NCBI GenBank assembly: GCA_018267365.1 | Contig: JAFDYQ010000001.1 | Coordinates: forward strand, 124,001-188,000 | Source: Bacteroidota bacterium | GTDB lineage: Bacteria > Bacteroidota > Bacteroidia > Chitinophagales > LD1 | Reading direction: 5' to 3' | DNA length: 64,000 bases | Shown here: positions 217 through 39,019 of the stretch, piece by piece | Layout: each line of letters opens with the position of its first letter | Position numbering within the stretch: position 1 is the stretch's first letter | The notes under the pieces: generated by a model | Told to the model about the DNA's origin: nothing | Seen by the model: only the letters and a program-made list of their open reading frames with translations | The model's database searches: none | Made by a program: the position numbers and the translations under genes

Positions 217-245
217 AGGTGAGACAGTGATCTCAACCTTCTTTG

Positions 246-318
246 AGCCATTGGTCGGACTCGAACCGACGACCGGCCGTTTACAAAACGGCTGCTCTAC
301 CAACTGAGCTACAATGGC
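246..318 (-). tRNA. tRNA-Thr (anticodon TGT)
   Basis: A 73-base cloverleaf reads leftward from 318. The acceptor stem GCCATTG pairs with CAATGGC, the D stem is GCTC/GAGC, the anticodon stem is GCCGT/ACGGC with loop TTTGTAA, and the T stem is GTCGG/CCGAC with loop TTCGAGT. The anticodon is TGT at 285-283, reading ACA (threonine). The discriminator base is T and no CCA is encoded. The 3' end points at an integrase start, so it may serve as an attachment site. Confidence 0.95.
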
Positions 319-624: not shown

Positions 625-1566
625 TCAAGCTAAATTTTCAAAGGATAATTTATTTATGTCGTCTTGTAAGTCCTCGGTGCGCACGGATCTCAAATATGTT
701 TGTGTCATAGCGATTCCACTATGCCCCATGAGTTTCTGAATTTTTATTACTCCCACATCTTGCATTGCAAGATTAGTTGCGAAAGTATGTCTGAATCTAT
801 GCAAGTGGAGTTTGACACCTGAAGACTTTCGGATTCGTTCAACCCAATGTTTAAGACCATGCAGTGTTAATGGTCGATCACCTAAATTAGATACAAATAG
901 AAATTCTGTCTTGCAACCTCTTTTTTTTCGTTCATCCAAGTACTCGATCAGATGCATTTTCAAATACGGGTTTATGGGAATTTTCCTAAACCTCTTTGAT
1001 TTAGATGTTTCCGGCCTTACACAGATGTAACCACCATAAAGGTCTATATCTCTTACCTCAAGAGACACCAACTCATTACGCCGTATTCCGCAAAAAGTCA
1101 AAATTCCTATTATTGATATATCCCTTCTGAGCAGGAAAGAATTTGAAGCACCTTGCACTACCGCGCCCATTATCTTCTTAATGTCTTCCCCGCTCAATGC
1201 GCGTTTGTCTACAAAAACTGGCTTGGGAAGTTTCAGCGTTTCAAATGGGTTGTCGTTAATGTGCCTGTGCTGTTTCAACCATTGAAAAAATGTTTTTAAC
1301 CGATTTGCATAGTGAGCTACTGTTGCGTCCTTGACGCCCTTTCTTATTTTATCTTTCCCTACAATTCTTTCTCGCTCTTGTAATCTTTTAAAGAATACAG
1401 TTACTAATTCTGGCGAAACATCACTTAGGCACGTTATCTCGGGCACAATTTTTAAAAATTGCTTATAAGCATCTTTTGAACTTTTTATTGATGCGGGACG
1501 AAGTCGCCGTACGTATAGGCATTCGTTTATGTAGTTTTCAAAATGCTCATGTAATGATATTTGCAT
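625..1566 (-). CDS. Tyrosine recombinase / integrase
   Basis: A complete 313-residue site-specific recombinase that would catalyse DNA strand exchange through a tyrosine-DNA intermediate. The N-terminal half (about residues 1-115) is a core-binding SAM-like domain. The catalytic domain shows the full residue set: Arg162 in CGIRRNEL, Lys190 in the beta hairpin, the HxxR box at His256/Arg259 (HLHRFRHTF), His282 in LMGHSG and nucleophile Tyr291 in TQTYLR. I chose the ATG at 1566 rather than a TTG six bases upstream. The gene is divergent from the ATPase at 1670, and the pair looks like the left end of a mobile element. Whether it mobilises the island to its right is an inference. Confidence 0.9.
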   Translation of the reverse strand: MQISLHEHFENYINECLYVRRLRPASIKSSKDAYKQFLKIVPEITCLSDVSPELVTVFFKRLQERERIVGKDKIRKGVKDATVAHYANRLKTFFQWLKQHRHINDNPFETLKLPKPVFVDKRALSGEDIKKIMGAVVQGASNSFLLRRDISIIGILTFCGIRRNELVSLEVRDIDLYGGYICVRPETSKSKRFRKIPINPYLKMHLIEYLDERKKRGCKTEFLFVSNLGDRPLTLHGLKHWVERIRKSSGVKLHLHRFRHTFATNLAMQDVGVIKIQKLMGHSGIAMTQTYLRSVRTEDLQDDINKLSFENLA

Positions 1567-1669
1567 GAACAAATTCTACTCTTACCGCTTTTTGAGTTGC
1601 AGTAGAGCAGATTTGCAAGTCATAATTGACACTCTGTTTTTGAATATACTTTTAAAGGAGAATAGGAGG

Positions 1670-2857
1670 ATGAAATATAGCCCTGATATCACCTATTTTG
1701 GTAAAACGCTGTTTAGAAATGAGCTGCGTTCTTTCGGCCTATACCAAAGAGATCGCTTAATGCATAGTTATATACTTGGGAAAACAGGTACGGGTAAGTC
1801 TACCCTCTTACATACAATGATAATGCAAGACATTCATGCAGGTCGTGGACTTTGTCTTATAGACCCGCACAGCGATCTTGTTCAGAGTGTTTTTAAAGCA
1901 ATACCTAGAGAGCGAAGTAATGATGTTATCTATTTGAATGTTCCAGATCCTTCACTTACACTTAAGTACAATCCTTTTAGGAAAGTTAGTTATGAGAAAC
2001 GCTCGCTTGTAGCATCGAGTATCTTAGATGTTTTCAAAAAGCTCTGGCATGACGCATGGGGTGTAAAGTTGGAGCATATTCTACGTTACGCAATTCTGAC
2101 ATTGTTAGACCAGCCAAAGGCCACCATAGCGGATATATCACTACTGTTATTGGACAGGTCATTCAGGCATCAGGCTATAAAGCATATACAGAATCCGAGT
2201 GTCAAAGACTTTTGGCTAAAAGAGTTTAATACCTATAATCGCTATGATCTGCTCCCTGTATTGAATAAGGTCGGTGGTATGCTGGCGCATCCCGTTATTA
2301 AGCGCGTACTTATCGAGAATAAAGAGGAAATATCATTGCGTAAGGCAATGGATGAAGGAAAGATTGTATTGGTTAATCTGTCTAAAGGACATGTAGGTGA
2401 AGATGCATCTCATATTCTAGGTGCGTTACTTATTAGCTCGATAAGTTCAGCGGCGTTCAGCAGAGTAGATACGGAGGAGCCCAGGCGAGTTCCCTTTATG
2501 GTGTATATGGACGAGTTTCATAACTTCACCACCCTATCGTTGGTCAATATGTTTTCGGAGCTACGCAAATTTAAGGTTGGAATGATACTCGCGCATCAGT
2601 ACATCCACCAGTTGGAAGATGAGATCAAGCACGCAATCTTTGGTAACGTCGGGACAATAATTTCTTTTCGTTTGGGAACAGAAGACGCAATGCTCATGAG
2701 CAAAGAGATGTTCCCAGAGTTTGGATTGGAGGACTTTATCAATCTTCCTAACTATTATATCTATCTTAAAGTAATGATAGATGGAGTACCGAGCAGGCCG
2801 TTTAGTGCAGAGATTATTAAAGATGAGGCTGGTGAACTTTTTGATTTGCTCTCTTAA
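1670..2857 (+). CDS. VirD4/TraD-type ATPase (shorter of two)
   Basis: A 395-residue P-loop ATPase of the DUF87/TraM-recognition type, related to conjugative coupling proteins. Walker A is GKTGTGKST at residues 37-45 and Walker B is MVYMDEF with Asp281/Glu282. A conserved DPHSD box follows Walker A. The frame is open from 1565, but the ATG at 1670 is preceded by AGGAGG and the extra 35 residues are not family-like, so I take 1670. It resembles the ATPase part (about residues 375-770) of the protein at 9328-12420, so one element carries two homologues. It lacks the N-terminal membrane segments of classical VirD4. No relaxase is encoded nearby, so a role in DNA transfer is inference. Confidence 0.82.
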   Translation: MKYSPDITYFGKTLFRNELRSFGLYQRDRLMHSYILGKTGTGKSTLLHTMIMQDIHAGRGLCLIDPHSDLVQSVFKAIPRERSNDVIYLNVPDPSLTLKYNPFRKVSYEKRSLVASSILDVFKKLWHDAWGVKLEHILRYAILTLLDQPKATIADISLLLLDRSFRHQAIKHIQNPSVKDFWLKEFNTYNRYDLLPVLNKVGGMLAHPVIKRVLIENKEEISLRKAMDEGKIVLVNLSKGHVGEDASHILGALLISSISSAAFSRVDTEEPRRVPFMVYMDEFHNFTTLSLVNMFSELRKFKVGMILAHQYIHQLEDEIKHAIFGNVGTIISFRLGTEDAMLMSKEMFPEFGLEDFINLPNYYIYLKVMIDGVPSRPFSAEIIKDEAGELFDLLS

Positions 2858-8766: not shown

Positions 8767-9318
8767 ATGATCCTAGACTCTGATATCGCTCTCGCAGTTG
8801 AGATAGCTATTCCAATATGTCTTCTCCTTTGGTTCACTTATTGGCTCATTAATAGGACGATTGAGAATCAGCAACACTGGCATCATACTTTCGATGGACA
8901 ACAGTTTTCCGCTGACGAGTTTTATTCGTTAGTCCAACAGCATATTGAGAAAAGAGAAATACCCGACATTGAATTTTCGCGGACGACCTATACTCAAAAG
9001 CGGATGTTGAGCGATGAACGCGAGTATTTTCACATTGAGGTAGATGACTGTTTCTATGACGTATGTGCCGCGCCGCATGGCAACTGTTATTTTGTTTCCC
9101 TCTGGTCTGCCGAGCGTCCACCGGTATTAAAGAAAATTCTGAAAAGGATTCCAATTCTCAAGCATTGGCTAGAATCGAAATCATACCATCAAATAGACAC
9201 GGATAGCGTAACTCATAATGTAATCTTCACAAGTTTTAATGAAGCCATTGATGCTATCACCACTACAAAAGGTCTACGCGCGCTAACCAAATCTGAAAAG
9301 AAGGTGGTACTCAATTAA
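8767..9318 (+). CDS. Membrane-anchored protein, unknown
   Basis: A 183-residue protein with one hydrophobic segment near the N-terminus (about residues 9-28, IALAVEIAIPICLLLWFTYW) and a soluble, charged remainder. No family recognised. It lies 9 bases upstream of the large ATPase, so the two are probably co-translated. It may tether that ATPase to the inner membrane, in place of the membrane segments the ATPase lacks; this is inference from gene order. Confidence 0.65.
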   Translation: MILDSDIALAVEIAIPICLLLWFTYWLINRTIENQQHWHHTFDGQQFSADEFYSLVQQHIEKREIPDIEFSRTTYTQKRMLSDEREYFHIEVDDCFYDVCAAPHGNCYFVSLWSAERPPVLKKILKRIPILKHWLESKSYHQIDTDSVTHNVIFTSFNEAIDAITTTKGLRALTKSEKKVVLN

Positions 9319-9327
9319 TGACAAGCT

Positions 9328-12300
9328 ATGCCCCAATCACGCTCGGAACAGATCACAGCAAACTTCTATGAATGGGAGGAGCGTGGCCGTGGCTGGCAAG
9401 TATATGATGCAGCGGTTGAGTTAGAGCCTATTTTTATACCATTTTCCCCAGTAAGGTTTAACGGATCGAACAAAGTGGATGAGGGCTTTAGGCCATCAAT
9501 GTTTACGAAGGCCACGACCTACATCAAGAAAGCGTTTACCGTTTCAAACAGTAATCAATCGGAGGATTTTTCAGAGGATGCAGATGGTCTCCTCGCATAC
9601 CTTTATACTTCAGAAGCACCATTACAGAGCTTTTCCATTTCCTTCCCAAAGGATGCAAGGCCGTTCAAGGCATACGACATAGAGAAGTTTCTAACCATGC
9701 TTTCCTATACCAATAGCACGGTATGTTTTGAAATCGTCGCTTGGAGCGATTTGATACGATTGCAATTCGTATGTCGACAGTCCGACACTTCCCATATTGA
9801 AAACCAAGTAAGGGCATACTTCCCATCCTGCATTATCCAAAATGGTACGACATATATCAATAATATAGTCGATGGCGAAAAACATTTTTCAATTGTTGAC
9901 TTCGGCTTAGAGGAAGAATACATGCGTCCAATTGCCTCGGCTGATAAGTTCGATACAGACCCTCTCACAGGTCTCTATGGAGTATTAGATCACTTGGAGG
10001 GTGGAGAGCAGGCGGTCATTCAAGTTCTATTCAAAGGGACAGTAAATCCATGGGCTCAAAGCATTATGAGTTCCGTGAGTGATGGCAAAGGAGAATCCAT
10101 GTTTTCCGATGCACCGGAAATGCCGAAGCTAGCCCAGGAGAAAATATCTGCACCCCTCTTTAGCGTGAGTATCCGTGTTATTGCACAGGATACCAGTTAT
10201 GAAGGAGCTTGCAGGACCATTGCAAAGATCGGGCGAGTGCTTACCCAAAGTTCCCAGAGTATCGGGAATAAGCTCATACCGCTGAATAACAATGGCTATA
10301 GCGACCAAAACCATTTGTATGATGTACTGTTAAGGCAGACGCATAGAGGTGGAATGCTCCTTAACGCAAAAGAGCTTGCCACATTTGTACACTATCCTAT
10401 ATCAGTCTCTGCAAAGAAGCTTGAAACGGATATCCGCAAGACAAAGCGCGCGCCCAACATAGCATGGGGGTATGATTTCTGTCTGGGTTCAAATCAGCAT
10501 CAGGGATTTGAAGGTATCGTTACTCTCAGCCCTGAGCAAAGATTGAAACATATGCATGTGATCGGTGCGACAGGCACAGGCAAATCTACACTTCTCCAAT
10601 CGTGCATTGTGCAAGATATCCTACTTGGCAATGGATTAGCTGTACTTGACCCACACGGCGATCTCATAGAAAGCATATTGCCCCATATTCCTGAGAACAG
10701 GTATGATGATGTACTACTCATTGACCCGTCAGACGCAGAATATCCTGTAGGCTTCAATATCCTATCGGCTCATTCGGACCTAGAGAAGGAAATACTTGCC
10801 TCCGACTTGGTAGCGGTATTCAAGCGGCTCTCTACGAGTTTCGGCGATCAGATGTATTCCGTACTAGCTAACGCCATCCTAGCCTTTGTGGAAAGCACCG
10901 AAGGCGGCACGCTGATAGATTTGCGTCGTTTTCTTATCGAGAAGCCATATCGAGAGCAATTCCTAAAGACTGTTTCTGACCCGAGCGTTGTGTACTACTG
11001 GCAAAAGGAATATCCATTGCTTAAGTCTAGTTCCATTGGGTCTATCCTCACAAGGTTAGATTCTTTTTTGCGACCTAAACTGATACGGAACATGGTGGCT
11101 CAGAAAAAGAGCATAGACTTTGAGAGCATCATGGATGGCAAGAAAATACTTCTAATAAAGCTCTCCCAAGGTTTAATCGGAACTGAAAACAGCTACCTCT
11201 TAGGGACGTTCTTTGTGTCTAAGATATATCAGGCGGCAATGGCACGTCAGGCTAAAAGTAAGGAAAACCGGAATAACTTTTTTCTATACATAGACGAGTT
11301 TCAGAACTTTATTACTTCCTCGACGTCCGCTATTCTCTCAGGGACACGCAAATATGGCTTAGGCTGTATTCTCGCCCACCAGGACATGAGCCAGTTGCAG
11401 AAGTATGATACAGAGCTTGCAAACTCCGTAGTGGCAAATGCAGGAACGCGAATTTGCTTTAGGGTTGGAGATTTAGATGCCAAACGTTTTGCCGAGGGCT
11501 TTTCGTCTTTTGACCCACAAGACATACAAAACTTAGGAGTGGGACAAGCGGTAGCTCGTATAGAACGTCCAGAATATGATTTTACGATGTCTACCCTTCA
11601 GTTAAAAAGCGTTGATCCCAGTATTGCTCTTGAAACAGCTAGGAAGGTTATAGATTATTCACGAGAACGATACGGCACAGCTAAGAACGAGATTGAGAAA
11701 TCGCTGGAATATTTAAGAGATGAAAAGCAGGTTGTTCAGAAGGAAGTAGCGGAAGAAGAGATGCCGGAGATAGTTTCCGGTACTCCTGGAAGTGAGCCTA
11801 AGGAGGAAGTTTCTATCCCCGAAATTCAAGAGCCAGTTAAGGCTATTGAAATAACGGATAGTAAAACAAAGCAGAAGCTCATAGAGAAGCAAGAATTGAC
11901 AGAGCACCGTTATACGCAGATGTATATTAAGAAGATGGCGGAAGCGCGGGGTTATACGGCAAAACTGGAACAACCAACAAAGGATGGCGGGCGCGTGGAT
12001 GTGTTGCTTGAAAAAAACGCTAACCGTATCGCGTGCGAAATAGGAGTTACAACCACGACAAAATGGGAGACTCATAACATTCAAAAATGCTTAGACGAAG
12101 GATATGAGCTTGTCGTTGCTCTGACAAATAAGACAAGGCTAGTTTCTTCACTTCAAAAAGAAATACAAGCGCAAATACCACCACAGTGGCATGACCGCAT
12201 TATGGTTGCAGATCTCCCAACATTCTTGTCCTTTTTGGACAAGGAAAATGCTAAAGACGCCTCCGTCGAAACAAGAATTAAGGGATATAGAGTAAAGCTT

Positions 12301-12420
12301 GAATACTCCGCAATTTCGGAACAAGAAAATAAGAGCAAAAGTGAAACTATCACTAAACTGATAGTTGATTCATTTAAGAAACAAAACCAAACTCCATATA
12401 CCGATGCACCTTTTACTTAA
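9328..12420 (+). CDS. Large VirD4/HerA-like ATPase with nuclease-like C-terminus
   Basis: A 1,030-residue protein. The first ~370 residues form an uncharacterised N-terminal region. The ATPase has Walker A GATGTGKST (413-421), a DPHGD box and Walker B LYIDEFQNF (Asp656/Glu657), typical of the DUF87/TraM-recognition coupling-protein group. After a charged, Glu-rich linker (about 780-850), residues 870-980 look like a PD-(D/E)xK fold: Asp891 in GGRVDVLLE and Glu904 in IACEIG. The usual Lys two residues after Glu is a Gly here, so catalysis would need a migrated Lys (Lys912 is near) or is lost. It is followed, overlapping, by a coiled-coil gene. It may be a conjugative motor, or a HerA-nuclease-like defence ATPase. 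Confidence 0.8.
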   Translation: MPQSRSEQITANFYEWEERGRGWQVYDAAVELEPIFIPFSPVRFNGSNKVDEGFRPSMFTKATTYIKKAFTVSNSNQSEDFSEDADGLLAYLYTSEAPLQSFSISFPKDARPFKAYDIEKFLTMLSYTNSTVCFEIVAWSDLIRLQFVCRQSDTSHIENQVRAYFPSCIIQNGTTYINNIVDGEKHFSIVDFGLEEEYMRPIASADKFDTDPLTGLYGVLDHLEGGEQAVIQVLFKGTVNPWAQSIMSSVSDGKGESMFSDAPEMPKLAQEKISAPLFSVSIRVIAQDTSYEGACRTIAKIGRVLTQSSQSIGNKLIPLNNNGYSDQNHLYDVLLRQTHRGGMLLNAKELATFVHYPISVSAKKLETDIRKTKRAPNIAWGYDFCLGSNQHQGFEGIVTLSPEQRLKHMHVIGATGTGKSTLLQSCIVQDILLGNGLAVLDPHGDLIESILPHIPENRYDDVLLIDPSDAEYPVGFNILSAHSDLEKEILASDLVAVFKRLSTSFGDQMYSVLANAILAFVESTEGGTLIDLRRFLIEKPYREQFLKTVSDPSVVYYWQKEYPLLKSSSIGSILTRLDSFLRPKLIRNMVAQKKSIDFESIMDGKKILLIKLSQGLIGTENSYLLGTFFVSKIYQAAMARQAKSKENRNNFFLYIDEFQNFITSSTSAILSGTRKYGLGCILAHQDMSQLQKYDTELANSVVANAGTRICFRVGDLDAKRFAEGFSSFDPQDIQNLGVGQAVARIERPEYDFTMSTLQLKSVDPSIALETARKVIDYSRERYGTAKNEIEKSLEYLRDEKQVVQKEVAEEEMPEIVSGTPGSEPKEEVSIPEIQEPVKAIEITDSKTKQKLIEKQELTEHRYTQMYIKKMAEARGYTAKLEQPTKDGGRVDVLLEKNANRIACEIGVTTTTKWETHNIQKCLDEGYELVVALTNKTRLVSSLQKEIQAQIPPQWHDRIMVADLPTFLSFLDKENAKDASVETRIKGYRVKLEYSAISEQENKSKSETITKLIVDSFKKQNQTPYTDAPFT

Positions 12421-12952
12421 TGATGAGCTAGAGACACTACTAGTAAAACGCTCCTTGGAAAGACAGGACAAAACTGGATATAGTGTATTGTCTGACTTTA
12501 TTGGTCTTTTTAGCGATCCCATATCTTCATTCCTCTCACCAATTATCAAATTGTGGGAGATTGAAGTTGAACGAAAAAAGCTACAGATTTTGCATGAGCA
12601 ACTTCGTAGTCGCACAGAACTTCAAAAATCAATGATTGAAGCTAAAATATTTGAAATTACCGCAGTTATTCAACAGCGAAATCAAGAATTTGAAATAATT
12701 CGAATCGCCTTTTCCCATCAATTTAGACTTCTTGATGATTATCACAAAACTCACGGCGAAACCTTTGCAATGCTTGGGAAGCAATTGATTATTGAAAAGG
12801 ATACTATAAAGATTAAAATAATTGAACATCTAATGTTAGTGATTACAAGTAATGCTTCTGCAAATATGAATGCGATGTTGAATATGGTCTCTCCATTGCT
12901 AAAAACTCAAAATGTTTTAGTTGCAAATATTCTTAACCAATTAAATTCATAA
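12404..12952 (+). CDS. Helical / coiled-coil protein, unknown
   Basis: I take the ATG at 12404, which overlaps the end of the large ATPase by 17 bases and gives 182 residues; an earlier in-frame start at 12365 lies deep in the ATPase gene. The middle (about 55-125) is rich in Lys, Glu, Leu and Ile with heptad-like spacing and should form a long helix or coiled coil. There is no clear membrane segment. Translational coupling suggests it works with the ATPase. No family recognised. Confidence 0.6.
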   Translation: MHLLLNDELETLLVKRSLERQDKTGYSVLSDFIGLFSDPISSFLSPIIKLWEIEVERKKLQILHEQLRSRTELQKSMIEAKIFEITAVIQQRNQEFEIIRIAFSHQFRLLDDYHKTHGETFAMLGKQLIIEKDTIKIKIIEHLMLVITSNASANMNAMLNMVSPLLKTQNVLVANILNQLNS

Positions 12953-12954
12953 AT

Positions 12955-13542
12955 ATGATACTAGGATGGGTGCTTTTAGGATATGGAATTTACAAACTGC
13001 TAAGCCAAGAAATTAAGGAAAAAGTACAGAGAGAGGAAGAAAAGATTGAAGAGGAAATAGCGGAATTTAAAGTACGGTATGTTGAAAGCAAAATAGAACT
13101 CGATAGGCGAATTCAGGATGCAAAACGCAACATAAACTTTCAAAACTGTATTGATGCGCACTATCAGTCCATGATGACCTCCAATATTGCTTACGGAATT
13201 TTAGATAGAGAGCAAAGGTTGAAAGGTATATACTATAATGGAATCAAAGATATTGATACAAAGATCACAAACACCAAAAAAGAAAGAGATAAATACAAAG
13301 CTCATACAAGTGAGCGTGAAGAAAAGCACAAGGAAATGCAAAGCGGTATAGATCTCAAAAACGGTATTCTTGCGCACTTAAAGATTCACTCTGATAAGTC
13401 AAAAGAAATCCTATTAGATGTGAAAGAATTAAATAATAAGACACGAGACTTAAAATTCTTAATTCGAGATAATTTTGGTCAGAAAGGTCTCGAATGGTTT
13501 AATCGATTGGAAGAACGCACAAATAATCGGAAAAGAAGCTAG
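12955..13542 (+). CDS. Membrane-anchored coiled-coil protein, unknown
   Basis: A 195-residue protein that starts two bases after the previous stop. A short hydrophobic N-terminus (MILGWVLLGYGIYKLL) could be a membrane anchor. It is followed by a highly charged helical region with dense Lys/Glu and heptad patterns over most of its length. Together with the previous gene it gives two coiled-coil partners behind the large ATPase. No function can be named. Confidence 0.65.
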   Translation: MILGWVLLGYGIYKLLSQEIKEKVQREEEKIEEEIAEFKVRYVESKIELDRRIQDAKRNINFQNCIDAHYQSMMTSNIAYGILDREQRLKGIYYNGIKDIDTKITNTKKERDKYKAHTSEREEKHKEMQSGIDLKNGILAHLKIHSDKSKEILLDVKELNNKTRDLKFLIRDNFGQKGLEWFNRLEERTNNRKRS

Positions 13543-13581: not shown

Positions 13582-15117
13582 ATGAAATTTAAGGTTCTAG
13601 GCAGGTTTGAAGCTCCACCCTATAATGCTAAATCAAAGGCATATTTGACATGGGATAATTGGAATGATTTTTCATATTTAACACTTTTCGGATTAATATA
13701 TGTAGATGAAAATTCTACTAGACATACTATCGGCTCTATTAAGATTGGTTATGTTGATCAAGGTGAAGGAGAACGCAGGTTAGCGATAGGTGATGTTTTT
13801 GATACTCTACAAGAAGATTGCTTTTCTCTTGGTCAATCTGATGAGTATTATGAGAATCTTAATAAGCTAGGTACTGAAACTAGGGACGATATTCTTTTGG
13901 CGCTTAGAGATATAGCTAAGATGCCGGAAATGTTTGATCTAGCTATTGAGGAAAACGTAACCCGCATTTCATTGTTGCGATATATAAGCAAAACATCAGT
14001 TCTTGGCCAGTTTCGCAGATTGGCAAATGGCGGTGTGAGACTTACTAATTATAGTTTCCAATTTAAAGCTCCAAAAATTAGAGGAAGTACGAACACAATG
14101 GAACTATCTTTCAATGTAGAACCAGAATCCTTTCCACCAACAAACATCCATGTATTGATCGGCAGAAACGGAGTTGGGAAAACTCATCTCATCAATAATA
14201 TGATTAACTCGCTTGTCGAGCCAGACCCTCTTAGATATGGTAAATTTATTTCTGATCTGCCTGATGTAAATCAGGACCAAATCTTCGCTAACTTAACTTC
14301 CATTACTTTCAGCGCGTTTGACGCAACTGAACCGCAGCAAGAAAGGAAAGATAAAACTCAGGGCATCCAGTTTTCTTATATTGGATTAAAGAGATTTCCA
14401 ACATCTACTGAGAAAAATCCTGGCCCGAAAAGCACTGTTATGCTCAGAAATGAGTTCTTCAAAAGTTTAGGCTCCTGTATCGCTGGTGGAAAAGTTTCTA
14501 GATGGAAAAAAAGTATTGAAATGCTTGAATCTGATCCTAACTTTCAAGATGCTGCTATCGGCAGTCTTGCTGATATTCAATCGGAAGAAGAACGAAAACG
14601 CATTGCATTTGAGAAATTCTGGAAACTAAGCTCAGGGCATAAAATAATTTTATTGACTGTCACACGGTTGGTTGAAACATTGCAGGAAAAGAGTTTGGTT
14701 CTGATAGATGAACCTGAGGCACATTTACATCCCCCTTTATTATCCGCTTTTACTAGAACTCTTTCTGATTTACTAATGGATACTAATAGTGTTGCTATAA
14801 TTGCAACCCATTCTCCAGTTGTTTTGCAAGAAGTACCTAGAAGTTGTGTGTGGAAACTGAGAAGAATAGGTGCAGAAGCCACTGTTGAGAGACTTAGTAT
14901 AGAATCTTTTGGTGAAAACGTTGGAACATTAACCAACGAAATCTTCGGTCTTGAGGTAACTGAATCTGGCTATTATAAAATTCTTACTGCTTCCGTTCGA
15001 GAAAGCACTTCTTTCAGAAGTGTTTTACGCAAGTTCGATGGTCAATTAGGCATGGAAGCACAGGCTGTCGTAAGATCACTTATTGCAGTTAATAATCTAG
15101 ACCATGAGGACAATTAA
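13582..15117 (+). CDS. Septu-like (PtuA-type) AAA/ABC ATPase
   Basis: A 511-residue ATPase of the ABC/SMC-like type seen in OLD and PtuA proteins. Walker A is GRNGVGKT (194-201). A KLSSGHK segment stands where the ABC signature is expected. Walker B is SLVLIDEPEAHLHP with Asp376/Glu377, followed by an IIATHSP switch. The DEPEAHLHP box is characteristic of OLD/RecF-like ATPases paired with nucleases in defence. Its end overlaps the HNH gene by 14 bases. The pair matches the PtuA-PtuB layout of Septu, in which the ATPase assembles with and controls the HNH nuclease; no reverse transcriptase is present, so it is not a retron. Assignment to Septu is by architecture only. Confidence 0.75.
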   Translation: MKFKVLGRFEAPPYNAKSKAYLTWDNWNDFSYLTLFGLIYVDENSTRHTIGSIKIGYVDQGEGERRLAIGDVFDTLQEDCFSLGQSDEYYENLNKLGTETRDDILLALRDIAKMPEMFDLAIEENVTRISLLRYISKTSVLGQFRRLANGGVRLTNYSFQFKAPKIRGSTNTMELSFNVEPESFPPTNIHVLIGRNGVGKTHLINNMINSLVEPDPLRYGKFISDLPDVNQDQIFANLTSITFSAFDATEPQQERKDKTQGIQFSYIGLKRFPTSTEKNPGPKSTVMLRNEFFKSLGSCIAGGKVSRWKKSIEMLESDPNFQDAAIGSLADIQSEEERKRIAFEKFWKLSSGHKIILLTVTRLVETLQEKSLVLIDEPEAHLHPPLLSAFTRTLSDLLMDTNSVAIIATHSPVVLQEVPRSCVWKLRRIGAEATVERLSIESFGENVGTLTNEIFGLEVTESGYYKILTASVRESTSFRSVLRKFDGQLGMEAQAVVRSLIAVNNLDHEDN

Positions 15118-15955
15118 TCGGCCTACGGATACTGCGGGCGATGTTTTTACAGAGTGTATATCACTTGTGAGAAATCCAGGACTAAGACGTCGACTGAATG
15201 ACGTTAAAAACTTAGTAATTCAAGCCTCAGATGAACTTGATCAAAAAGTTACTAAAGGAAACCTGCATACCATAGTTAGAGAAACAATCATAAACGGCAA
15301 TGTGACTGCAAAAGAGTTAGAAAATGTTTACACTACCCGAATGGTGCCCAAATCATCACCTGGAAGAAAGATATATGACAAAATAAAGATTTCGGCTCCA
15401 CTGGGAATTTGTCCGTTATGCGCCCATAGAGAAGTAAAAACCATTGACCATTATTTGCCTAAAACTAAGTATCCACGTCTTGCTGTTGCACCTTTAAATT
15501 TACTGCCCGCCTGCACAGATTGTAATGACATAAAAGATGTCTTTTATCCCACAAAAGCAAGCGAAGAATTCATTCATCCCTATTACGATGATGTTGAAGA
15601 TGATCTTTGGTTGTATGCTCGAATCGAGCAAACAGTTCCAGCGACGGTACAATTCTATGTCAACCCACCTGATAATTGGTCTGAGCTTTTGAAAGAAAGG
15701 GTTAAATATCACTTTGAAAAATTGAATCTAAATGCTTTGTATTCGGTCCAAGCTGCGGTAGAATTAAATAACATTAATTATGGCTTATCTGAAATATTTG
15801 CGAGTAGTGGTGCTAATGGCGTTGAAGAGCATCTTTTGAAACAATCGCAATCGCGTTCACAAGCCAATATAAATTCTTGGCAAACTGCAATGTATGCGGC
15901 CATGTCATCTGATAACTGGTTTTGTAATGGCGGATTTCAACTTAGAGACATTTAG
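15104..15955 (+). CDS. HNH endonuclease (PtuB-type)
   Basis: A 283-residue protein with an HNH/McrA-like domain at about residues 100-145. CPLC (Cys103, Cys106) and CTDC (Cys137, Cys140) would bind zinc, IDHYLPK carries the catalytic His116, and Asn132 and Asn141 follow in the right places. This is the nuclease half of the ATPase-HNH pair and would cut DNA or RNA when released by the ATPase. It starts inside the end of the ATPase gene, a sign of coupled translation. The flanking residues are helical with no known domain. Confidence 0.78.
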   Translation: MRTINRPTDTAGDVFTECISLVRNPGLRRRLNDVKNLVIQASDELDQKVTKGNLHTIVRETIINGNVTAKELENVYTTRMVPKSSPGRKIYDKIKISAPLGICPLCAHREVKTIDHYLPKTKYPRLAVAPLNLLPACTDCNDIKDVFYPTKASEEFIHPYYDDVEDDLWLYARIEQTVPATVQFYVNPPDNWSELLKERVKYHFEKLNLNALYSVQAAVELNNINYGLSEIFASSGANGVEEHLLKQSQSRSQANINSWQTAMYAAMSSDNWFCNGGFQLRDI

Positions 15956-17197: not shown

Positions 17198-18162
17198 GCA
17201 ATAACTCTAACTTAAGTAGATTTGGAGAAATCATTACAATTCTTACCGGTATAGGAGGAATATTATCAGGGTTTTACGTCTTTGTTATAGGCTTTAGCCC
17301 GGGGACTTCTCAAGATTTGAAACGCGAATTTTTCTATCATATTGCACGTCAATTCTGGTTAGAAGCCTTTGTACTTTTATTCGTAAGCTTACTATTATTC
17401 GCTGTTTATCGATTTACATTAAATGGCAATGGCAAAGTTCATCTCTCGACATTATTTACCATCATTTTGGTTTCTGTAATAGGATTGAATATTTATTGGG
17501 GATACCATTTTCTTAAAGCAAGATATTTTTTCATTAATAATCTTCTATATATTTCTTTTAAATGTAGTATCGATAGAAAAGTATGCGCAAAAGTCAATGA
17601 AGGAGACTATGAAGGCGCTAGCGATCTATATTCGAGACTATTGAAAAGTTTCCCCGTAGATTCCAGAGGATCTTACGCAGTATATCAAGTTCGAGAACTA
17701 AACTCTCGCATTGAAAGGGCGAACGAGTATCAAACGTTAGGTAACGGCGTATTTGACAAAACCAATAACAGTGTGAGCAGAACAAAATTTGCAGACCTAC
17801 TATTGTCCTATTCACTCTATCCTCAGGAAAATAAGCGCAATGACATAATCAGGGTTATAAATGTCCTAGATTCAGGAATAGTAAATGCCAGTATATTTTT
17901 CCGCATGCTCAAATCAGGTCAATTAACAGACGCTGAAAAGATTTATAATCAGTGGGGCTGGCTGTTTATCAGTAATGGAATATTAGAGAATAAGATGTAT
18001 GGCATGAGTAAATCTAGAAGCCATTTGCGATTTCAGCGTGCTATTGAATTAATTAGTACGATTGAAGATGAAACCGCATTTACTCAAAGGATCAAGGCTG
18101 CGTGGATGCTTGATAATGCCTCAAATATTATCAATTGGCAGCGAAAGGTTCGATATGATTAA
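17194..18162 (+). CDS. Multi-spanning membrane protein with helical tail, unknown
   Basis: A 322-residue protein with three membrane segments in the first 120 residues (around 10-30, 50-70 and 85-105), possibly a fourth near 110-125, then a soluble part that again looks like TPR-type helices. It is coupled by ATGA overlap to the previous gene. The shared pattern of membrane segment plus helical repeats suggests that the two proteins form a complex. No family recognised. Confidence 0.6.
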   Translation: MSNNSNLSRFGEIITILTGIGGILSGFYVFVIGFSPGTSQDLKREFFYHIARQFWLEAFVLLFVSLLLFAVYRFTLNGNGKVHLSTLFTIILVSVIGLNIYWGYHFLKARYFFINNLLYISFKCSIDRKVCAKVNEGDYEGASDLYSRLLKSFPVDSRGSYAVYQVRELNSRIERANEYQTLGNGVFDKTNNSVSRTKFADLLLSYSLYPQENKRNDIIRVINVLDSGIVNASIFFRMLKSGQLTDAEKIYNQWGWLFISNGILENKMYGMSKSRSHLRFQRAIELISTIEDETAFTQRIKAAWMLDNASNIINWQRKVRYD

Positions 18163-18215
18163 GCATTTCAAAGTACAGGAAAAGTGTAGTTTCAAAATCT
18201 ATTAATCTATGAGTT

Positions 18216-19061
18216 ATGAAATATTTCTATATACTTCTGCTTTTTTTATTACCTGTAATTTGCAAAGGCAATACATACTACCAATATGAAAATATAAAGG
18301 CGGTTACTGTTAACGTCAATTTAATTGAAACGGAATATCTAGCTTCTGTAGACTTACGATCAACACCTCAAATTGAATGGCTTGCTTTTGAAGTTATCGG
18401 ATTTATAATGTCGGAACTTTTACCTGCCGTATTCACAGAAATATGTCTTGATCTTGGAGTAAATCCACAAATATGCAATGCCGGCGGTCAAGCTATCAGT
18501 TTTCTATTGAGTCTTGAAGAAGGCAATTTACATATCGGACAAACTGGTGAAATCGAATGGAAAGTATCGCGAGGTAAAAAGGAAAGTTTTGTTTCGTTTA
18601 AAACCAAAGACCGCCTAATATCTCAACGATTAAGACAACTTTTGTTATCCTATTCAGAGAATTGTGCAAAAGACTTGATTTGGAAGAAAATAGTAAATCT
18701 TGATTTAAACAATATCCATATTAATTATGCTAATGACCGTGCGTTCCACCAAATTCAACTTCAGAATAATATTGCTAGAGGATTGAAATGGGCAGCTAGC
18801 GTAGACGGTACACAGTATACTTTTTCAAACTTACCAATAGATTTTCATGAGGGCCCAGGACTGTTCGGTGATTTGTATCCTTTTAGACCCGTGGAAATAG
18901 ATTTTTCCGAAAAGTATTTACCCTTTTATTTTAATGACGGTGCTTATGTTAGATTGGCCTACAATGGCCATACGCAAGATTTTTTCTTTAGATACGATAA
19001 ACGATATGTTTTGAATAGAAACTACGATGGGAATTTTCAAGCACTACCATATGACCTTTAG
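18216..19061 (+). CDS. Exported protein, unknown
   Basis: A 281-residue protein with a signal peptide (MKYFYILLLFLLPVICKGN). The mature part has a hydrophobic helix around residues 55-75 and a beta-rich C-terminus with several aromatic strands. It starts 53 bases after the previous gene and ends 37 bases before the convergent E2-E1-JAB gene, with no obvious terminator between. No family recognised. Confidence 0.6.
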   Translation: MKYFYILLLFLLPVICKGNTYYQYENIKAVTVNVNLIETEYLASVDLRSTPQIEWLAFEVIGFIMSELLPAVFTEICLDLGVNPQICNAGGQAISFLLSLEEGNLHIGQTGEIEWKVSRGKKESFVSFKTKDRLISQRLRQLLLSYSENCAKDLIWKKIVNLDLNNIHINYANDRAFHQIQLQNNIARGLKWAASVDGTQYTFSNLPIDFHEGPGLFGDLYPFRPVEIDFSEKYLPFYFNDGAYVRLAYNGHTQDFFFRYDKRYVLNRNYDGNFQALPYDL

Positions 19062-19098: not shown

Positions 19099-21447
19099 TT
19101 AAGAGATAGTTGCAATGTTTGTTTTATAAAACAGCTTCCCACTTGGATGAATCGTACAGGAGGGATCTCCTTCATTAGAAAGTATTATCATCAGAGGTTT
19201 GTCAGTTAAATATTCTTGTTGTAACGAAATCTGAGTGAGACTCTTTATATCCATCTCGCTTGGATTATTATTTTTCGATGGGTGAGAGTGCCATTCACCT
19301 ACATAGATTGCTTTCTCTCCATATCGCTTGTACATAGTATCTAAAAATTCTTGGCAATACTTTGTATCTTTTTGAAAGCGAGTTGCACTTCTAATCGCTT
19401 TTGGTCCGGGACCGCATGCCTCCGTTACAACTATCGTTGCGTCATCATTAATATATCCGGCTAAAACTCCCCCTGTCTCAATGTCAGGATCTTGGGCAAC
19501 CAGCGATTGCATAAATTCCAACCGACCTTTCTTAATTTCTACCTTAAATACCTTTTCATAATTACATGAATGGCATTGGGGGTGGCATGGAATGAATTGC
19601 TCTGTTAATTGATATGGCCGATCTATAGCAGTTCCATCTATCTTCTCAGTACTCCATATCCAATGATTGCTTTTTGATGGTCCATTCTGAATATGTTCAA
19701 TTGCTAATCGTGCTACTATGGAAGCCAATAATTTCAAGTCAGAGGCGCTAGCTGGTCGAATAGGATTGTTACATTCATTTTTTAACGTTGGATAATCTGG
19801 GTCTTCCGGTATTTCTATAAACTCTCTTCCCTCCCTTCGATATAGATTTAGACACTGCATACAAGCATCTTTCCCAGGCACCACACGGAAGATCCTTCCC
19901 ACTTTCCCGCCACGAAGCGCACGAACGTAAAATACTTCTCTATTATAAATAATAGCCTGTTCATTTATGAAACCTTCAGTATGATCATCTGCTATACTGG
20001 ATATAGATAGACTATTATTCAGAGTATATTCGCTGAAATCACTATATAAGACATCCCTTTTCACTGGGTGCACATTTAAAAAAGGATTATGAGCACAAAG
20101 GATTTTAGCTACAGCTGAAACCTTGTCTTGGGCGATTGCTTCTATACCTGCCAAATGTCGCACTGCATTTTGCGCTTTCATAACTTGGTTATCAATCAGG
20201 ATAATAGTTCCCACTCCAGCCTTACCTATGTTATCTGCAATTTCGCTTCCCAGAGCACCTACTCCTATTATATTGATCCCAACTTTGGATAAGAGAGGAT
20301 ATTTTGCGCGTGCGCCATTTCTCATAAAAAAGCTATCTGGTGTAAGCTTTTCACTTTCTATCGCCGCGACATTTTCATAGGATTCAATGATGTGGCTACT
20401 AATTTGCAAGGGATCTTTTGAGTAAACCGTAGAGACAGGCTCATCTTTTATCGTAGTCCTAAACATTTGAAACTCCATATCTCCGCGCCTATTCGGAAAT
20501 CTGATGCCTACATATAAATTTTCGGGTCTCGTTTCTAAATATTCACTACAAGTATCATGAAATCGCTTGATGCCTTGTATATAATCATCCTCTCCCACAA
20601 GTTTTACTAAATCTTTAAAAGTTTTAAAAGGCATGGGTTCCTTCTTCAATTGAAACCATGCGCCTTTAAGAACAATTTTTCTCTCTACTAAATCTGCTAG
20701 TAATTTGTTTTGACTTTGAAAATCTTCCGAAGTTTTAAGTTTGGGGTCCAACGGTTCCTTTACCGATTTAGAAATAAATTGACCTTGTGCATTCTTGCCA
20801 TCAAGTAATATTCCAGAATAGACATATGATTCTTGATCAAGAAATCTTCCTTTGGGGACTATTGAAATAACATTGGCGTAAAATAATCCCTGTACAATTT
20901 TCTCATCTAAAAACTCTTCCGGATAAATAATCTTAAGTCCGTGAAAGACATTGTTAAAATGCGCACAAAAATCTACATCTGGACTATCCGGTGGAAAGTT
21001 ATTTGTGATTAATGCTGTGCACCATTCACGGATTCTTTTTAGAATCGTTTTTATACCAAAAAATTCAAGTTCTACATCAAGATTATCCCACTCTAATACA
21101 CAAAGAGCTCCTAAGGAATTTTGATGTCTAAGATTATAATGAAATTCAATATAGGGTTGCAATTGAAGTGGTACAAAAACTAATGGCAATCCACTGATAT
21201 ACTCTACGAGTTGTTTTGGAAGAATTTGTTTGAGCGGATAAATTTGAGGTAGAGCATATGGCATTGCGTCAGTATATACAATCAGGAATGGATATTTATA
21301 GATTTTATCCAGACGCACAATTATTTCGCCATGCGATACAAAAAGGTTTTTTCTGAATTGATACAGTTCCTTATAATTTGCATCATTGGCTAACATTTTA
21401 CTTTCATTCCTCAAAATCTGAGGATGTTTTTTAAACCAATGTATCAT
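19099..21447 (-). CDS. E2-E1-JAB fusion: ubiquitin-like conjugation/deconjugation protein
   Basis: A 782-residue protein with three parts of a ubiquitin-like pathway. Residues 1-160 look like an E2: a YPF...YALPQIYPL strand region, an HYN box and a Cys116 in GALCVLEWD. Residues 385-585 are a ThiF/E1 adenylation domain with GVGALG (395-400), Asp419, paired Cys529/532 and Cys625/628 for zinc, and Cys559 in NECNNPIRP as a possible thioester site. Residues 640-782 are a JAB/JAMM peptidase: Glu657, EWHSHP (His720, His722), Ser730 and Asp733 form a complete metal site. I use the ATG at 21447, two bases after the upstream stop, not an earlier TTG. It is the last gene of a three-gene operon. Cap2/Cap3 of CBASS and Bil systems use the same activities on separate proteins. 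Confidence 0.88.
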   Translation of the reverse strand: MIHWFKKHPQILRNESKMLANDANYKELYQFRKNLFVSHGEIIVRLDKIYKYPFLIVYTDAMPYALPQIYPLKQILPKQLVEYISGLPLVFVPLQLQPYIEFHYNLRHQNSLGALCVLEWDNLDVELEFFGIKTILKRIREWCTALITNNFPPDSPDVDFCAHFNNVFHGLKIIYPEEFLDEKIVQGLFYANVISIVPKGRFLDQESYVYSGILLDGKNAQGQFISKSVKEPLDPKLKTSEDFQSQNKLLADLVERKIVLKGAWFQLKKEPMPFKTFKDLVKLVGEDDYIQGIKRFHDTCSEYLETRPENLYVGIRFPNRRGDMEFQMFRTTIKDEPVSTVYSKDPLQISSHIIESYENVAAIESEKLTPDSFFMRNGARAKYPLLSKVGINIIGVGALGSEIADNIGKAGVGTIILIDNQVMKAQNAVRHLAGIEAIAQDKVSAVAKILCAHNPFLNVHPVKRDVLYSDFSEYTLNNSLSISSIADDHTEGFINEQAIIYNREVFYVRALRGGKVGRIFRVVPGKDACMQCLNLYRREGREFIEIPEDPDYPTLKNECNNPIRPASASDLKLLASIVARLAIEHIQNGPSKSNHWIWSTEKIDGTAIDRPYQLTEQFIPCHPQCHSCNYEKVFKVEIKKGRLEFMQSLVAQDPDIETGGVLAGYINDDATIVVTEACGPGPKAIRSATRFQKDTKYCQEFLDTMYKRYGEKAIYVGEWHSHPSKNNNPSEMDIKSLTQISLQQEYLTDKPLMIILSNEGDPSCTIHPSGKLFYKTNIATIS

Positions 21448-21449
21448 CG

Positions 21450-22538
21450 TCAACCCATTGGTTTATTATCAATCTTAGTAGTATGGATGTAGATGTTGGA
21501 TTTCGATTCATCAATCTTTTTGTCATCTTCAGGATCATCTCCCTTACCATATTCCTCAATCAATTCGGTATCTATTGTGACTTCAAGTGATCCATTTTCG
21601 TCAATATCTACTATTACAGAATAGGGAGTTTTGCCCAAGTGAAATATTCCGTCTTCATCTACATATTTCTTATATAAATCCATAGCATCGTCATGTGGGT
21701 GATCATGTGGGCTATCCTCTTTTCGTGGAGCACTTACAATTAAATAGGTAGGCTTTATATTCTCGAGATGGGTTTCATATACATCTTCGTCATCTTCGCT
21801 AGTCTTAAAAAATGTTCTAGATCCATGATGACTTGCGCTGAGAACATTGGCGGGCAATTTAGCCTTATGATATTCAGTAATATGATCTTTCCACGCAGTC
21901 TTATCCGAATCACCTGTGATTAGAATACTCTTAGGATTAGTGCCGTAGGTAAATTTGATAACCCCGCATTGTTCATGTATTCGTCTGTATCGTTCATCGG
22001 CACTCGCATCGTCTATTTCATCACAAAGGTATTCCGATGGAGACAGAACAATGAAGTCAATGTTGCCAAGTTTTTTTATTACCTCTTTATCGCTTACAGT
22101 TCTAACCTTATTGTCATCATTGGTTCCTTTTAAATGATATTCGTTATTCTTTCCCACCTTTTTCAGCACATACTCCAATTCCTTAAACTTCTCCTTATGC
22201 TCTCCTCCCGGCCTATGATTTGAATGCCAGACCTCATCAAAACCTACTTCGTCATATACCTCTTTGATACCACCAATATGGTCATTATGTGGATGCGTAT
22301 TAATAAATACCTCCAATTTGCCGGAGGTCTTAAATAAATCCTTAAGCATGAGGATTAAATCGATTTCGTTTGGCTCTTTGTCCCTGTCACAATCAACTAG
22401 GACATATTTGTAGTCATTAAGATTTGGGCCTGTGGGAATGACCAAGAGAGTGCTTTCTCCTTGACCTGTATATAAAAATACGGTACGAAATACTCCTGCC
22501 TTTTGCGGTTTAATTATTTCTTCGGCGACTGTTGCCAT
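21450..22538 (-). CDS. ComEC/Rec2-like metallo-beta-lactamase-fold hydrolase
   Basis: A 362-residue MBL-fold protein. THPHNDHIGG carries the HxHxDH metal site (His82, His84, Asp86, His87), with Asp210 in LITGD and His237/His238 in SASHHGS. The GD...HHGS pattern is that of ComEC-type MBL domains, several of which act on nucleic acids. There is no membrane domain. The last ~40 residues are a charged, flexible tail ending in KPMG, so the C-terminal residue is glycine. The gene lies 39 bases after the membrane-protein gene and two bases before the E2-E1-JAB gene. It may be the effector or the conjugated substrate of that system; the second idea is inference. Confidence 0.85.
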   Translation of the reverse strand: MATVAEEIIKPQKAGVFRTVFLYTGQGESTLLVIPTGPNLNDYKYVLVDCDRDKEPNEIDLILMLKDLFKTSGKLEVFINTHPHNDHIGGIKEVYDEVGFDEVWHSNHRPGGEHKEKFKELEYVLKKVGKNNEYHLKGTNDDNKVRTVSDKEVIKKLGNIDFIVLSPSEYLCDEIDDASADERYRRIHEQCGVIKFTYGTNPKSILITGDSDKTAWKDHITEYHKAKLPANVLSASHHGSRTFFKTSEDDEDVYETHLENIKPTYLIVSAPRKEDSPHDHPHDDAMDLYKKYVDEDGIFHLGKTPYSVIVDIDENGSLEVTIDTELIEEYGKGDDPEDDKKIDESKSNIYIHTTKIDNKPMG

Positions 22539-23376: not shown

Positions 23377-23820
23377 TTAGATTGTTTTAAGTACCCTTTT
23401 GACTGCACTATCATTTTCTGGTTTCGGAAGGTATCCTGCTTCCCACGCTCCTATCGTTGAGCCATCAACCCCCACGAGTTTGCCCATCTGCGCATGCGTA
23501 AGGCCGTGACGATACCTATAGGCCTTTACTCTTCCGGCAAAAGTGTCAGGAAAGATTGGCGGTAGCTCACCGATAAACTGTATGATTTTAGCTACAAACT
23601 TTGCAGTGGGGTCAGATTGGTTATTCTCCCAAAGCGTAACTATGTCGGTACTTACCCCTACTATCGCGGCCACGTCCTTTTGAAAAAGTCGAAGCTCCAT
23701 TCTCCGCCTGCGCAGATAGTCCCCTAATGTCTTGGGATCTGTAGGGTAACCAGTCCCATAGGGTCTTTTGACAACTACCTCCAATTCGGAAAAAGGCAAC
23801 GCAACGACAAATTCGTGCAC
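23377..23820 (-). CDS. Tandem-HTH (XRE-like) protein, left copy
   Basis: A 147-residue protein with a GTG start. It holds two HTH units: RLFQKDVAAIVGVSTDIVTLWENN (given in part, about residues 43-66) and HAQMGKLVGVDGSTIGAWEAG (about 110-130). It is closely similar over its whole length to the protein at 37537-37962 on the same strand, roughly three residues in four being identical by eye. Both start GTG and share VALPFSE. The two copies flank the exported-protein locus as direct repeats. Solitary HTH proteins of this type are common in Bacteroidota; the target is unknown. Confidence 0.78.
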   Translation of the reverse strand: MHEFVVALPFSELEVVVKRPYGTGYPTDPKTLGDYLRRRRMELRLFQKDVAAIVGVSTDIVTLWENNQSDPTAKFVAKIIQFIGELPPIFPDTFAGRVKAYRYRHGLTHAQMGKLVGVDGSTIGAWEAGYLPKPENDSAVKRVLKTI

Positions 23821-37536: not shown

Positions 37537-37962
37537 TTATCCAATCAATCTTCTAATCATCACCTCATTTTCAGGATTCGGCAGATACCCCGCCTCCCAG
37601 GCTGAAACTGTAGAACCGTTTACGCCGACAAGCCTGCCCATTTGAGCATGCGTCAAACCATGAACATACCGATATGCTTTTACTTTTCCCGCAAATGTAT
37701 CGGGCAAGATCGGCGGTAGCTCACCAATGAATTGTATGATTTTGGCTACATATTTGGCGGTAGGGTCAGACTTGTTGTTCTCCCAAAGCGTGATGCAGTC
37801 TTCGGTTACGCCTACGATTTCCGCCACATCCTTTTGAAGAAGCCTGCGCTCCATCCTTTTGCGTCTTAGCCAGTCCCCTAGAGTCTTCGGATTTGCTGGA
37901 AAGCCCTGTCCGTAAGGTCTTGGCACTATTATGTCGATTTCGGAAAATGGCAACGCAACCAC
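37537..37962 (-). CDS. Tandem-HTH (XRE-like) protein, right copy
   Basis: A 141-residue paralogue of the protein at 23377-23820, with a GTG start at 37962, [20 protein letters not shown] as the first HTH and [21 protein letters not shown] (given to its end) as the second. Its start sits exactly where comM stops making sense, in another frame of the same strand. Transcription from the comM promoter should therefore run into it. The HTH body and terminator look intact, so it is probably expressed. Confidence 0.8.
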
Positions 37963-39019
37963 ATGGATTCATAGAAGCAATAAGCATAAAGCTGGCAGGA
38001 TACGTCACAGATGTCCGTGCACGGCTAATAGTGACACGCCGCTCCTCCATAGGCTGGCGCATCACCTCCAGCACAGTACGCTTAAACTCCGGCAACTCAT
38101 CCAAAAAAAGTACCCCATTATGGGCCAGAGATATTTCGCCCGGTTGCGGATTAGCTCCGCCGCCTACCAAGGCGACATCTGAAATAGTGTGATGGGGAGA
38201 TCTGAATGGCCTTTGATAGATGAGTGTCGCATTGCGCGGCAGCTTGCCTGACACGGAGTGTATCTTGGTAGTCTCCAGAGACTCCGGCAGCGTGAGTGGC
38301 GGCAGGATGGTAGGCAGTCGCTTGGCCAGCATTGTTTTGCCGGCACCCGGAGGGCCGATGAGTATGACATTGTGGCCACCAGCGGCTGCTATCTCCATGG
38401 CACGCTTTATATTCTCCTGACCCTTCACATCTGCAAAATCCAGATCAGAATGCAGCACGTTATCCATAAACTCCGCCCTGGTATCTACCACCGTAGGGGC
38501 TATCACCCTATCTCCATTAAGGAAATCTATAACCTCTGTCAGCGTCTCAGCGCCGTATACTTCCAGATTATTGACTATTGCCGCTTCCCGCGCATTCTGC
38601 TTGGGAAGAATAATACCTTTAAATTTTTCTTTTCGCGCCTGTATAGCTATAGGGAGTGCCCCTTTGATAGGCTGCAAGGTACCATCCAGTGATACCTCTC
38701 CCATGATAATATATTCGCTTACTCTCCCCGGGTCCTGTATTTGCTCCGATCCTGCCAGAATACCTACCGCTATGGTAAGATCATATGATGATCCCTCTTT
38801 GCGGATATCTGCCGGAGACATATTGACTACTATCTTGCGGCGGGGCCAGTGATAGCTGAGGTGCTTTATAGCAGTCTCTATCCGAAACTGGCTCTCCTTG
38901 ACAGCGCTATCAGGCAGGCCTACCAGAAAGTAGTCCTTGCCATTCTCTACACTCGTCTCTACAGTGATCGTGACGGCATCTACACCATAAACAGCACCTC
39001 CGAAAGTTTTAACCAGCAT
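37961..39019 (-). pseudogene. comM: comM / YifB Mg-chelatase-like AAA protein, truncated
   Basis: About 353 codons match ComM, a hexameric helicase that helps branch migration during natural transformation. The N-terminal Lon-like domain fills residues 1-180. Walker A is GPPGAGKT (222-229), Walker B is LFLDEL (304-309), and the conserved [13 protein letters not shown] segment ends at residue 353. Full-length family members have about 500 residues. Here the frame goes straight into the HTH gene out of register and stops at 37766 after about 64 unrelated residues. The lost part includes the arginine finger and sensor 2 region, so the product should be inactive. No C-terminal half was found elsewhere in the window. 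Confidence 0.82.

What the first reader, a model, noticed from the sequence alone, without database searches (positions are those of the whole stretch)
9328..13542. Coupling-protein ATPase with nuclease-like C-terminus and two coiled-coil partners
Seen: Walker A GATGTGKST, Walker B DEFQNF, then Asp891 and Glu904 in a PD-(D/E)xK-like setting, but with EIG instead of ExK. Two small coiled-coil genes follow with overlap or a 2-base gap, and a membrane-anchored protein precedes. Known: HerA-type ATPases with nucleases form defence systems. Inference: a motor-nuclease defence complex or an unusual DNA-transfer machine.
Basis: partly seen in the sequence, partly recalled or inferred. Interest (0 to 1): 0.6.

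Follow-up and report, generated by a model that had tools for sequence, protein, structure and literature searches.

The report
comM-inserted mobile element's two-motor DNA pump
The large ATPase belongs to the backbone of a mobile element that inserts into the bacterial gene comM: it joins a DNA-pumping motor to a nuclease-like domain, comes with a small membrane protein and a second pump, and most likely processes and moves the element's own DNA rather than acting as a stand-alone anti-phage system.

Summary
The four-gene unit is not. The small membrane protein (8767-9318) and the ATPase (9328-12420) form a conserved pair. The coiled-coil genes (12365-13542) have no counterpart beside any relative of the pair. 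Predicted folds: residues 93-371 resemble the VirB4 N-terminal domain (best Z 15.9), and 850-980 are a PD-(D/E)xK fold. H860, E881, D891, E904 and K920 are invariant in 33 homologues, so the lysine missing from ExK may lie on the next helix. The pair recurs with a second, shorter ATPase (here 1565-2857), recombinases, a phage-O-like replication protein and ArdC. In several genomes this set lies in 22-75 kb elements between two halves of comM, with no relaxase or T4SS gene found. In one contig the same backbone has a long motor without the nuclease domain, beside a separate 'replication-relaxation' protein with a similar D...E...K pattern. Best reading: a two-motor DNA-processing and transfer module of a defence-laden integrative element. 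Transfer is inferred, not shown.

The parts
9328..12420 (+). Long motor ATPase (1030 aa): VirB4-like N-terminal domain, VirD4/HerA-type motor, PD-(D/E)xK-like C-terminal domain
   Evidence: Pfam TrwB_AAD_bind 2e-12, T4SS-DNA_transf 4e-10; 33-sequence alignment
9328..10440 (+). N-terminal domain, residues 1-371; residues 93-371 resemble the VirB4 N-terminal domain
   Evidence: AF2 model pLDDT 85; Foldseek 2.8e-6 and VIA Z 15.9 over 245 residues to R388 TrwK/VirB4, next unrelated chain Z 8.6; no sequence-level match to three VirB4 proteins
10480..11580 (+). Motor domain, residues 385-751 (Walker A 10564-10590, Walker B 11293-11310)
   Evidence: invariant G413, G416, G418, K419, S420, D656, E657
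11875..12282 (+). C-terminal PD-(D/E)xK-like domain, residues 850-985; invariant H860, E881, D891, E904, E914, N917, K920
   Evidence: AF2 model, pLDDT above 90 over the core; Foldseek: Can2, Bax1, R2 endonuclease, PspGI; VIA Z 9.7 EndoMS, then other PD-(D/E)xK enzymes; weak Pfam CoiA_nuc, SfsA, Mrr_cat matches in some members
8767..9318 (+). Small membrane-anchored protein, conserved upstream partner of the long motor
   Evidence: in 23 of 26 relatives from database scans, usually overlapping or within a few bases, and beside the long motor in all eight related-genome loci that reach upstream of it; no Pfam family
1565..2857 (+). Short motor ATPase (430 aa), paralogue of the motor domain, recurrent second member of the module
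   Evidence: profile alignment to the long motor E 6e-81
625..1572 (-). Tyrosine recombinase beside the short motor; a large serine recombinase takes this place in most related elements
   Evidence: Pfam Phage_integrase 2e-29; LSR domains in relatives
23377..23820 (-). Double-HTH regulator, family found at element ends next to comM in relatives
37537..37962 (-). Second HTH gene of similar type, abutting the comM junction
37949..37972 (-). Junction between the element and comM (comM sense ATGAATCCATG / TGGTTGCGTTGCC)
   Evidence: junction comparison across genomes
37925..38995 (-). N-terminal half of interrupted comM; the C-terminal half lies about 75 kb away, upstream of the window in the same contig (G000:C11:85955-86422)

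Best explanation
The long ATPase is part of the backbone of an integrative mobile element that large serine recombinases insert at the MNPCPCG codons of comM. It works, as I infer, as a membrane-linked DNA pump. The N-terminal domain has the fold of VirB4. The central motor belongs to the VirD4/HerA class. The C-terminal domain is a PD-(D/E)xK-type nuclease that cuts or nicks the element's DNA and so does the work of a relaxase. The small membrane protein 8767-9318 tethers it, and the short motor is the second pump. After excision and replication started by the O-like protein, the pumps would drive the element's DNA out of the cell, either alone or through a helper channel, with ArdC protecting it in the next host. 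Shown or strongly supported: the element, the comM insertion, the domain folds (as predictions), the conserved pair, the two-motor association, and no relaxase or T4SS gene found. Inferred: nuclease activity, DNA pumping and cell-to-cell transfer. The defence genes between the two motors are cargo.
For: comM is split around the element at the same codons in G000, G004, G025, G110 and G052, and in G074 with the halves on two contigs, with shared end sequences TGCGTTGC / GCAACGCA around a TG core in several of them. Eight of nine related genomes with the full-length motor lack an intact comM, while roughly 150 of the 198 genomes searched have a full-length one. Conserved families over 11 regions: short motor, long motor, small membrane protein, LSR, O-like replication protein, HTH genes, ArdC. 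In the 22-kb element of G025, the proteins scanned with Pfam include no relaxase or T4SS component. PF03432 hits in these genomes are on other contigs, and VirB4-profile hits on the element contigs are weak: the motors themselves, and one FtsK-sized protein outside the element in G000 and in G004. Homologues of the long motor in a Bacillus and an Embleya plasmid stand next to a replication-relaxation gene inside conjugation operons. In contig L193 the same backbone (short motor, LSR, HTH, F9) has a 691-aa long motor without the C-terminal domain, 19 bases from a separate replication-relaxation protein. Virus-like contigs L200, L204, L205 and L208 have motor / replication-relaxation / motor. 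No such separate protein was found in the bacterial loci whose long motor carries the nuclease domain.
Against: No transfer, pumping or cutting has been measured, and no oriT or channel protein was found. Homology of the nuclease-like domain to the replication-relaxation family is not established (hhalign probability 5%), and the 'relaxase' role of that Pfam family is itself not shown here. Virus-like contig L189 has both a long motor with the nuclease domain and a partial replication-relaxation ORF 3 kb away. Some contigs with two motors look like true phages (terminase in L200), which already have another way to move. The VirB4 likeness is structural only. The window's own copy has a tyrosine recombinase; its O-like and ArdC genes were not found beside it but only with the second copy of the island.
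Confidence: 0.4

Rival explanations
1. The module acts inside the cell on the element's own DNA (replication, dimer resolution, partition or excision) and does not move it to another cell.
For: Linked to an O-like replication protein, HTH regulators and recombinases; a similar set sits in phage-like contigs with a ParA-like gene; no channel gene found.
Against: Two VirD4/VirB4-type motors with a membrane partner, and ArdC, are typical of DNA transfer; plasmid homologues lie in conjugation operons.
Confidence: 0.22
2. A coupling-protein adapter that lets the element ride a helper conjugation system of the host, as integrative and mobilizable elements do.
For: VirD4/TraG-type motor signatures; three other contigs of the same genome have PF03432 relaxases, so conjugative or mobilizable elements visit this host.
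Against: The VirB4-like N-terminal domain and second motor go beyond a coupling protein; no PF03432 relaxase on the element.
Confidence: 0.18
3. A motor-nuclease defence system, like HerA-nuclease systems, that destroys phage or rival-element DNA.
For: Motor fused to a nuclease fold; surrounded by defence cargo such as a Septu-like pair; the PADLOC NsnC profile matches residues 833-926 weakly.
Against: It belongs to the mobile-element backbone while the cargo around it changes from element to element; its matches to PADLOC models are weak motor matches (mad8, DndH).
Confidence: 0.15

Closest known systems
VirB4 / VirD4 ATPases of type IV secretion systems (TrwK, TrwB of R388)
   Same: N-terminal fold like TrwK/VirB4 (Z 15.9); motor like TrwB (Pfam 2e-12)
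   Different: C-terminal PD-(D/E)xK-like domain; no T4SS genes found around it; N-terminal likeness not visible in sequence
Orphan VirD4-type coupling proteins of Patescibacteria
   Same: N-terminal domain plus motor, profile match 100% over 663 columns; a survey reports 5,713 VirD4 homologues in Patescibacteria, few near virB4 (PMC12102498)
   Different: Chromosomal, in the loci read between cysS-like and dnaX-like genes (names by reading the sequences); no nuclease domain; N-terminal hydrophobic segment in the same protein in the loci read. That these are the survey's proteins is an assumption.
MOBC relaxases (pAD1 TraX)
   Same: PD-(D/E)xK-type nuclease used to start DNA transfer (review PMC12857230)
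   Different: Separate protein; here the nuclease is fused to the motor and lacks ExK; no direct comparison made
Pfam Replic_Relax (PF13814) proteins next to related motors
   Same: Same place beside the motor; PD...E...K pattern with a late lysine in the alignment
   Different: Separate protein with extra N-terminal sequence; homology not significant
TdtA of ICETh1, Thermus transjugation
   Same: Integrative element with a HerA/FtsK-family pump and a nuclease, no T4SS or relaxase homologues needed (PMC5365140)
   Different: Separate NurA-like nuclease, tRNA insertion site; no sequence comparison made here
Large-serine-recombinase elements targeting Mg-chelatase/comM genes
   Same: This gene family is the target of 12.4% of predicted site-specific LSRs (PMC10083194)
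   Different: That survey names no two-motor backbone in the passages read

Membership tests
VirD4/TraG/TrwB-type motor | TrwB/TraG-type nucleotide-binding domain above the Pfam cut-off, with Walker A and B | tested here: met
   PF10412 46.9 bits (cut-off 20.5), PF02534 39.6 (20.1), PF12696 35.4 (22)
VirB4 | VirB4 N-terminal domain fold | tested here: met
   Foldseek 2.8e-6, VIA Z 15.9, rmsd 3.7, 245 aligned, on a predicted model
VirB4 | Score above the NCBIfam VirB4 cut-off | tested here: not met
   TIGR00929 19.7 bits, cut-off 643
PD-(D/E)xK nuclease superfamily | alpha-beta-beta-beta-alpha-beta core fold | tested here: met
   Predicted model; top structural matches are PD-(D/E)xK enzymes; E-values are modest (best 1.2e-3), best Z 9.7
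PD-(D/E)xK nuclease superfamily | Catalytic D, E and K, with K in ExK | tested here: inconclusive
   D891 and E904 invariant, 906 not K; K920 invariant on the next helix. A late lysine is catalytic in Toscana virus endonuclease D113/E127/K145 (PMC6847833)
Conjugative element (ICE) | Relaxase and T4SS genes on the element | tested here: not met
   No PF03432 on element contigs, no canonical VirB4 there, Pfam scan of most proteins of the 22-kb G025 element; PF01076 search uninformative, other relaxase classes not searched
HerA/nuclease defence systems | Match to a known defence HerA or its partner nuclease | tested here: inconclusive
   PADLOC: only weak mad8, DndH and NsnC matches
HerA/nuclease defence systems | Protection against phage | not testable with these tools
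   -
comM-targeting LSR element | Element between two comM halves with shared ends and an LSR | tested here: met
   in the window's genome the island is composite, with two copies of the module

The most novel reading that the evidence does not exclude
A class of self-transmissible integrative elements in double-membraned bacteria that move without a conventional relaxase or T4SS, using two VirB4/VirD4-type pumps, one of them fused to a PD-(D/E)xK nuclease that replaces the relaxase, and that carry interchangeable defence islands into comM.
Probability: 0.25. Interest if true: 0.85.

Novelty: new variant of a known kind. Interest (0 to 1): 0.55.

Why it matters
Many defence islands have no known way of moving. 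If this reading is right, here is the engine of one widespread kind (Bacteroidota, Planctomycetota, Eisenbacteria and others): a compact pump with a built-in nuclease instead of a conjugation apparatus. It also makes testable why a competence gene, comM, is a preferred landing site, since insertion breaks a gene thought to serve natural transformation (role of ComM from general knowledge).

Tried and rejected
Coiled-coil partners: rejected, no relative near the motor and none of 12955-13542 in the other related genomes searched. A PADLOC model Unk_03 matches 12955-13542, but what it belongs to was not found. Relationship of the small membrane protein to the Patescibacterial N-terminus or to VirB4: not seen. 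Sequence match of the N-terminal domain to PDB chains: none. Nuclease-like domain against PDB by sequence: chance matches only. Nuclease-like domain against the replication-relaxation family: 0.3% with one sequence, 5% with an alignment. I first thought the replication-relaxation protein might be the relaxase of pWBG749-type staphylococcal plasmids; the paper puts that relaxase, SmpP, in MOBP, so this was dropped. An att-like motif was sought in the window with one pattern and not found. One review on PD-(D/E)xK variants was not held.

Full report
What is there. Pfam places its centre with coupling-protein motors. A small protein with one N-terminal hydrophobic segment precedes it (8767-9318). 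Two small coiled-coil genes follow, but they do not recur.

A conserved pair, not a four-gene set. Relatives over most or all of the length were found in nine of the 198 related genomes searched, in other phyla by a scan of genome contigs, and in viral contigs. In 26 relatives from the scans the small membrane protein was recognised in 23; the coiled-coil genes in none. The second coiled-coil gene has no match in the other related genomes.

A mobile element in comM. The relatives lie in regions with recombinases: large serine recombinases in most, a tyrosine recombinase in the window. In five genomes comM is split around these regions within one contig, in G000 with the N-half at window 37925-38995 and the C-half 75 kb away; in G074 the halves are on two contigs. 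In several genomes the junctions share the pattern ATGAATCCnTG / TGCGTTGC on one side and GCAACGCA..TG / CCCTTGCGG on the other, as expected for a serine recombinase with a two-base core. Eight of the nine genomes with a long motor have no intact comM; G083 is the exception, with an intact comM about 15 kb from the motor. Roughly 150 of the 198 genomes searched have a full-length comM (counted by eye). The G000 island is composite: it holds two copies of the module. G052 has two comM C-halves, so repeated insertion seems to occur.

Backbone genes. Clustering over 11 regions gives a short motor paralogous to the long one, LSRs, HTH genes, an O-like replication protein, ArdC, and two small proteins that look RNase-H-like by eye. 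Some of the 11 regions were chosen only for the short motor, so the counts are not independent. In several other bacteria the short motor, small membrane protein and long motor are directly adjacent (L116, L118, L125). The proteins of the 22-kb element of G025 that were scanned with Pfam contain no relaxase or channel protein. PF03432 relaxases lie on other contigs; the PF01076 search was uninformative.

Domains. A predicted model of residues 1-396 resembles R388 VirB4 (Z 15.9 over residues 93-371, next unrelated chain Z 8.6). No sequence-level match of this domain was seen with three VirB4 proteins. A model of residues 850-1030 has the PD-(D/E)xK core, and its structural neighbours are EndoMS, Can2, FokI, BamHI and Holliday-junction resolvases. 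Five residues, H860, E881, D891, E904 and K920, are invariant in 33 sequences. The lysine of ExK is missing, but K920 sits on the next helix. Toscana virus endonuclease has D113, E127 and catalytic K145, 18 residues after the glutamate, so lack of ExK is not evidence of inactivity. Activity remains untested.

The separate-protein version. In a Bacillus plasmid a homologue of the N-terminal domain plus motor (hhalign 99.8%) is followed by a replication-relaxation protein (PF13814) in a conjugation operon; the same order is seen in an Embleya plasmid. In viral-collection contigs the order motor / replication-relaxation / motor recurs. Contig L193 has the integrative-element backbone, but its 691-aa long motor lacks the nuclease domain and has the separate protein 19 bases away. 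No separate copy was found in the bacterial loci with the fused domain; virus-like contig L189 has both. The alignment of the separate proteins shows PD...E...K with a late lysine (read by eye). Profile comparison does not establish homology (5%). I take this as a suggestion that the fused domain does the same job.

Phage-like carriers. Some of these contigs carry terminase, ParA-like, O-like and ArdC genes. A transfer role is therefore not the only possibility: the module could serve DNA processing within the cell.

Judgement. The ordinary parts are a known motor class, a known insertion target and known cargo. What I did not find described in the papers read is the two-motor backbone with a fused nuclease on a comM element without a relaxase. 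The literature search was limited to open papers, so novelty is provisional.

Noticed in passing
window 13582-15955: Septu-like ATPase and HNH pair (PADLOC PDC-M01A / PtuA and PDC-M01B), directly after the coiled-coil genes.
   Followed up: partly
window 19099-22538 (-): 784-aa protein that reads like an E1-JAB fusion and a metallo-beta-lactamase-like protein, resembling CBASS accessory genes; judged by eye only.
   Followed up: no
window 245-318 (-): tRNA-Thr inside the island; similar sequences at C44:167076-167155 and C25:49735-49814 of the same genome, the first beside another short motor and integrase.
   Followed up: partly
window 24674-35947: 3757-residue repetitive protein ending like a Bacteroidota surface-sorting tail, inside the comM-flanked island; judged by eye.
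   Followed up: no
L090 (G052:C18:6024-6488 and 17982-18443): Two comM C-terminal halves in a row, suggesting repeated insertion into the same site.
   Followed up: no
L039:10184-10678: Backbone family F9 (and F14 elsewhere) looks RuvC/RNase-H-like by eye; F9 has no Pfam match.
   Followed up: no
L131-L186: Patescibacteria carry a chromosomal relative of the long motor without the nuclease domain, often with the same neighbours, apparently cysS and dnaX.
   Followed up: partly
L204, L208, L200: Phage-like contigs of about 44 kb with a motor, replication-relaxation protein and second motor in a row, with an O-like protein (L204, L208) or ArdC (L204, L200) nearby.
   Followed up: partly
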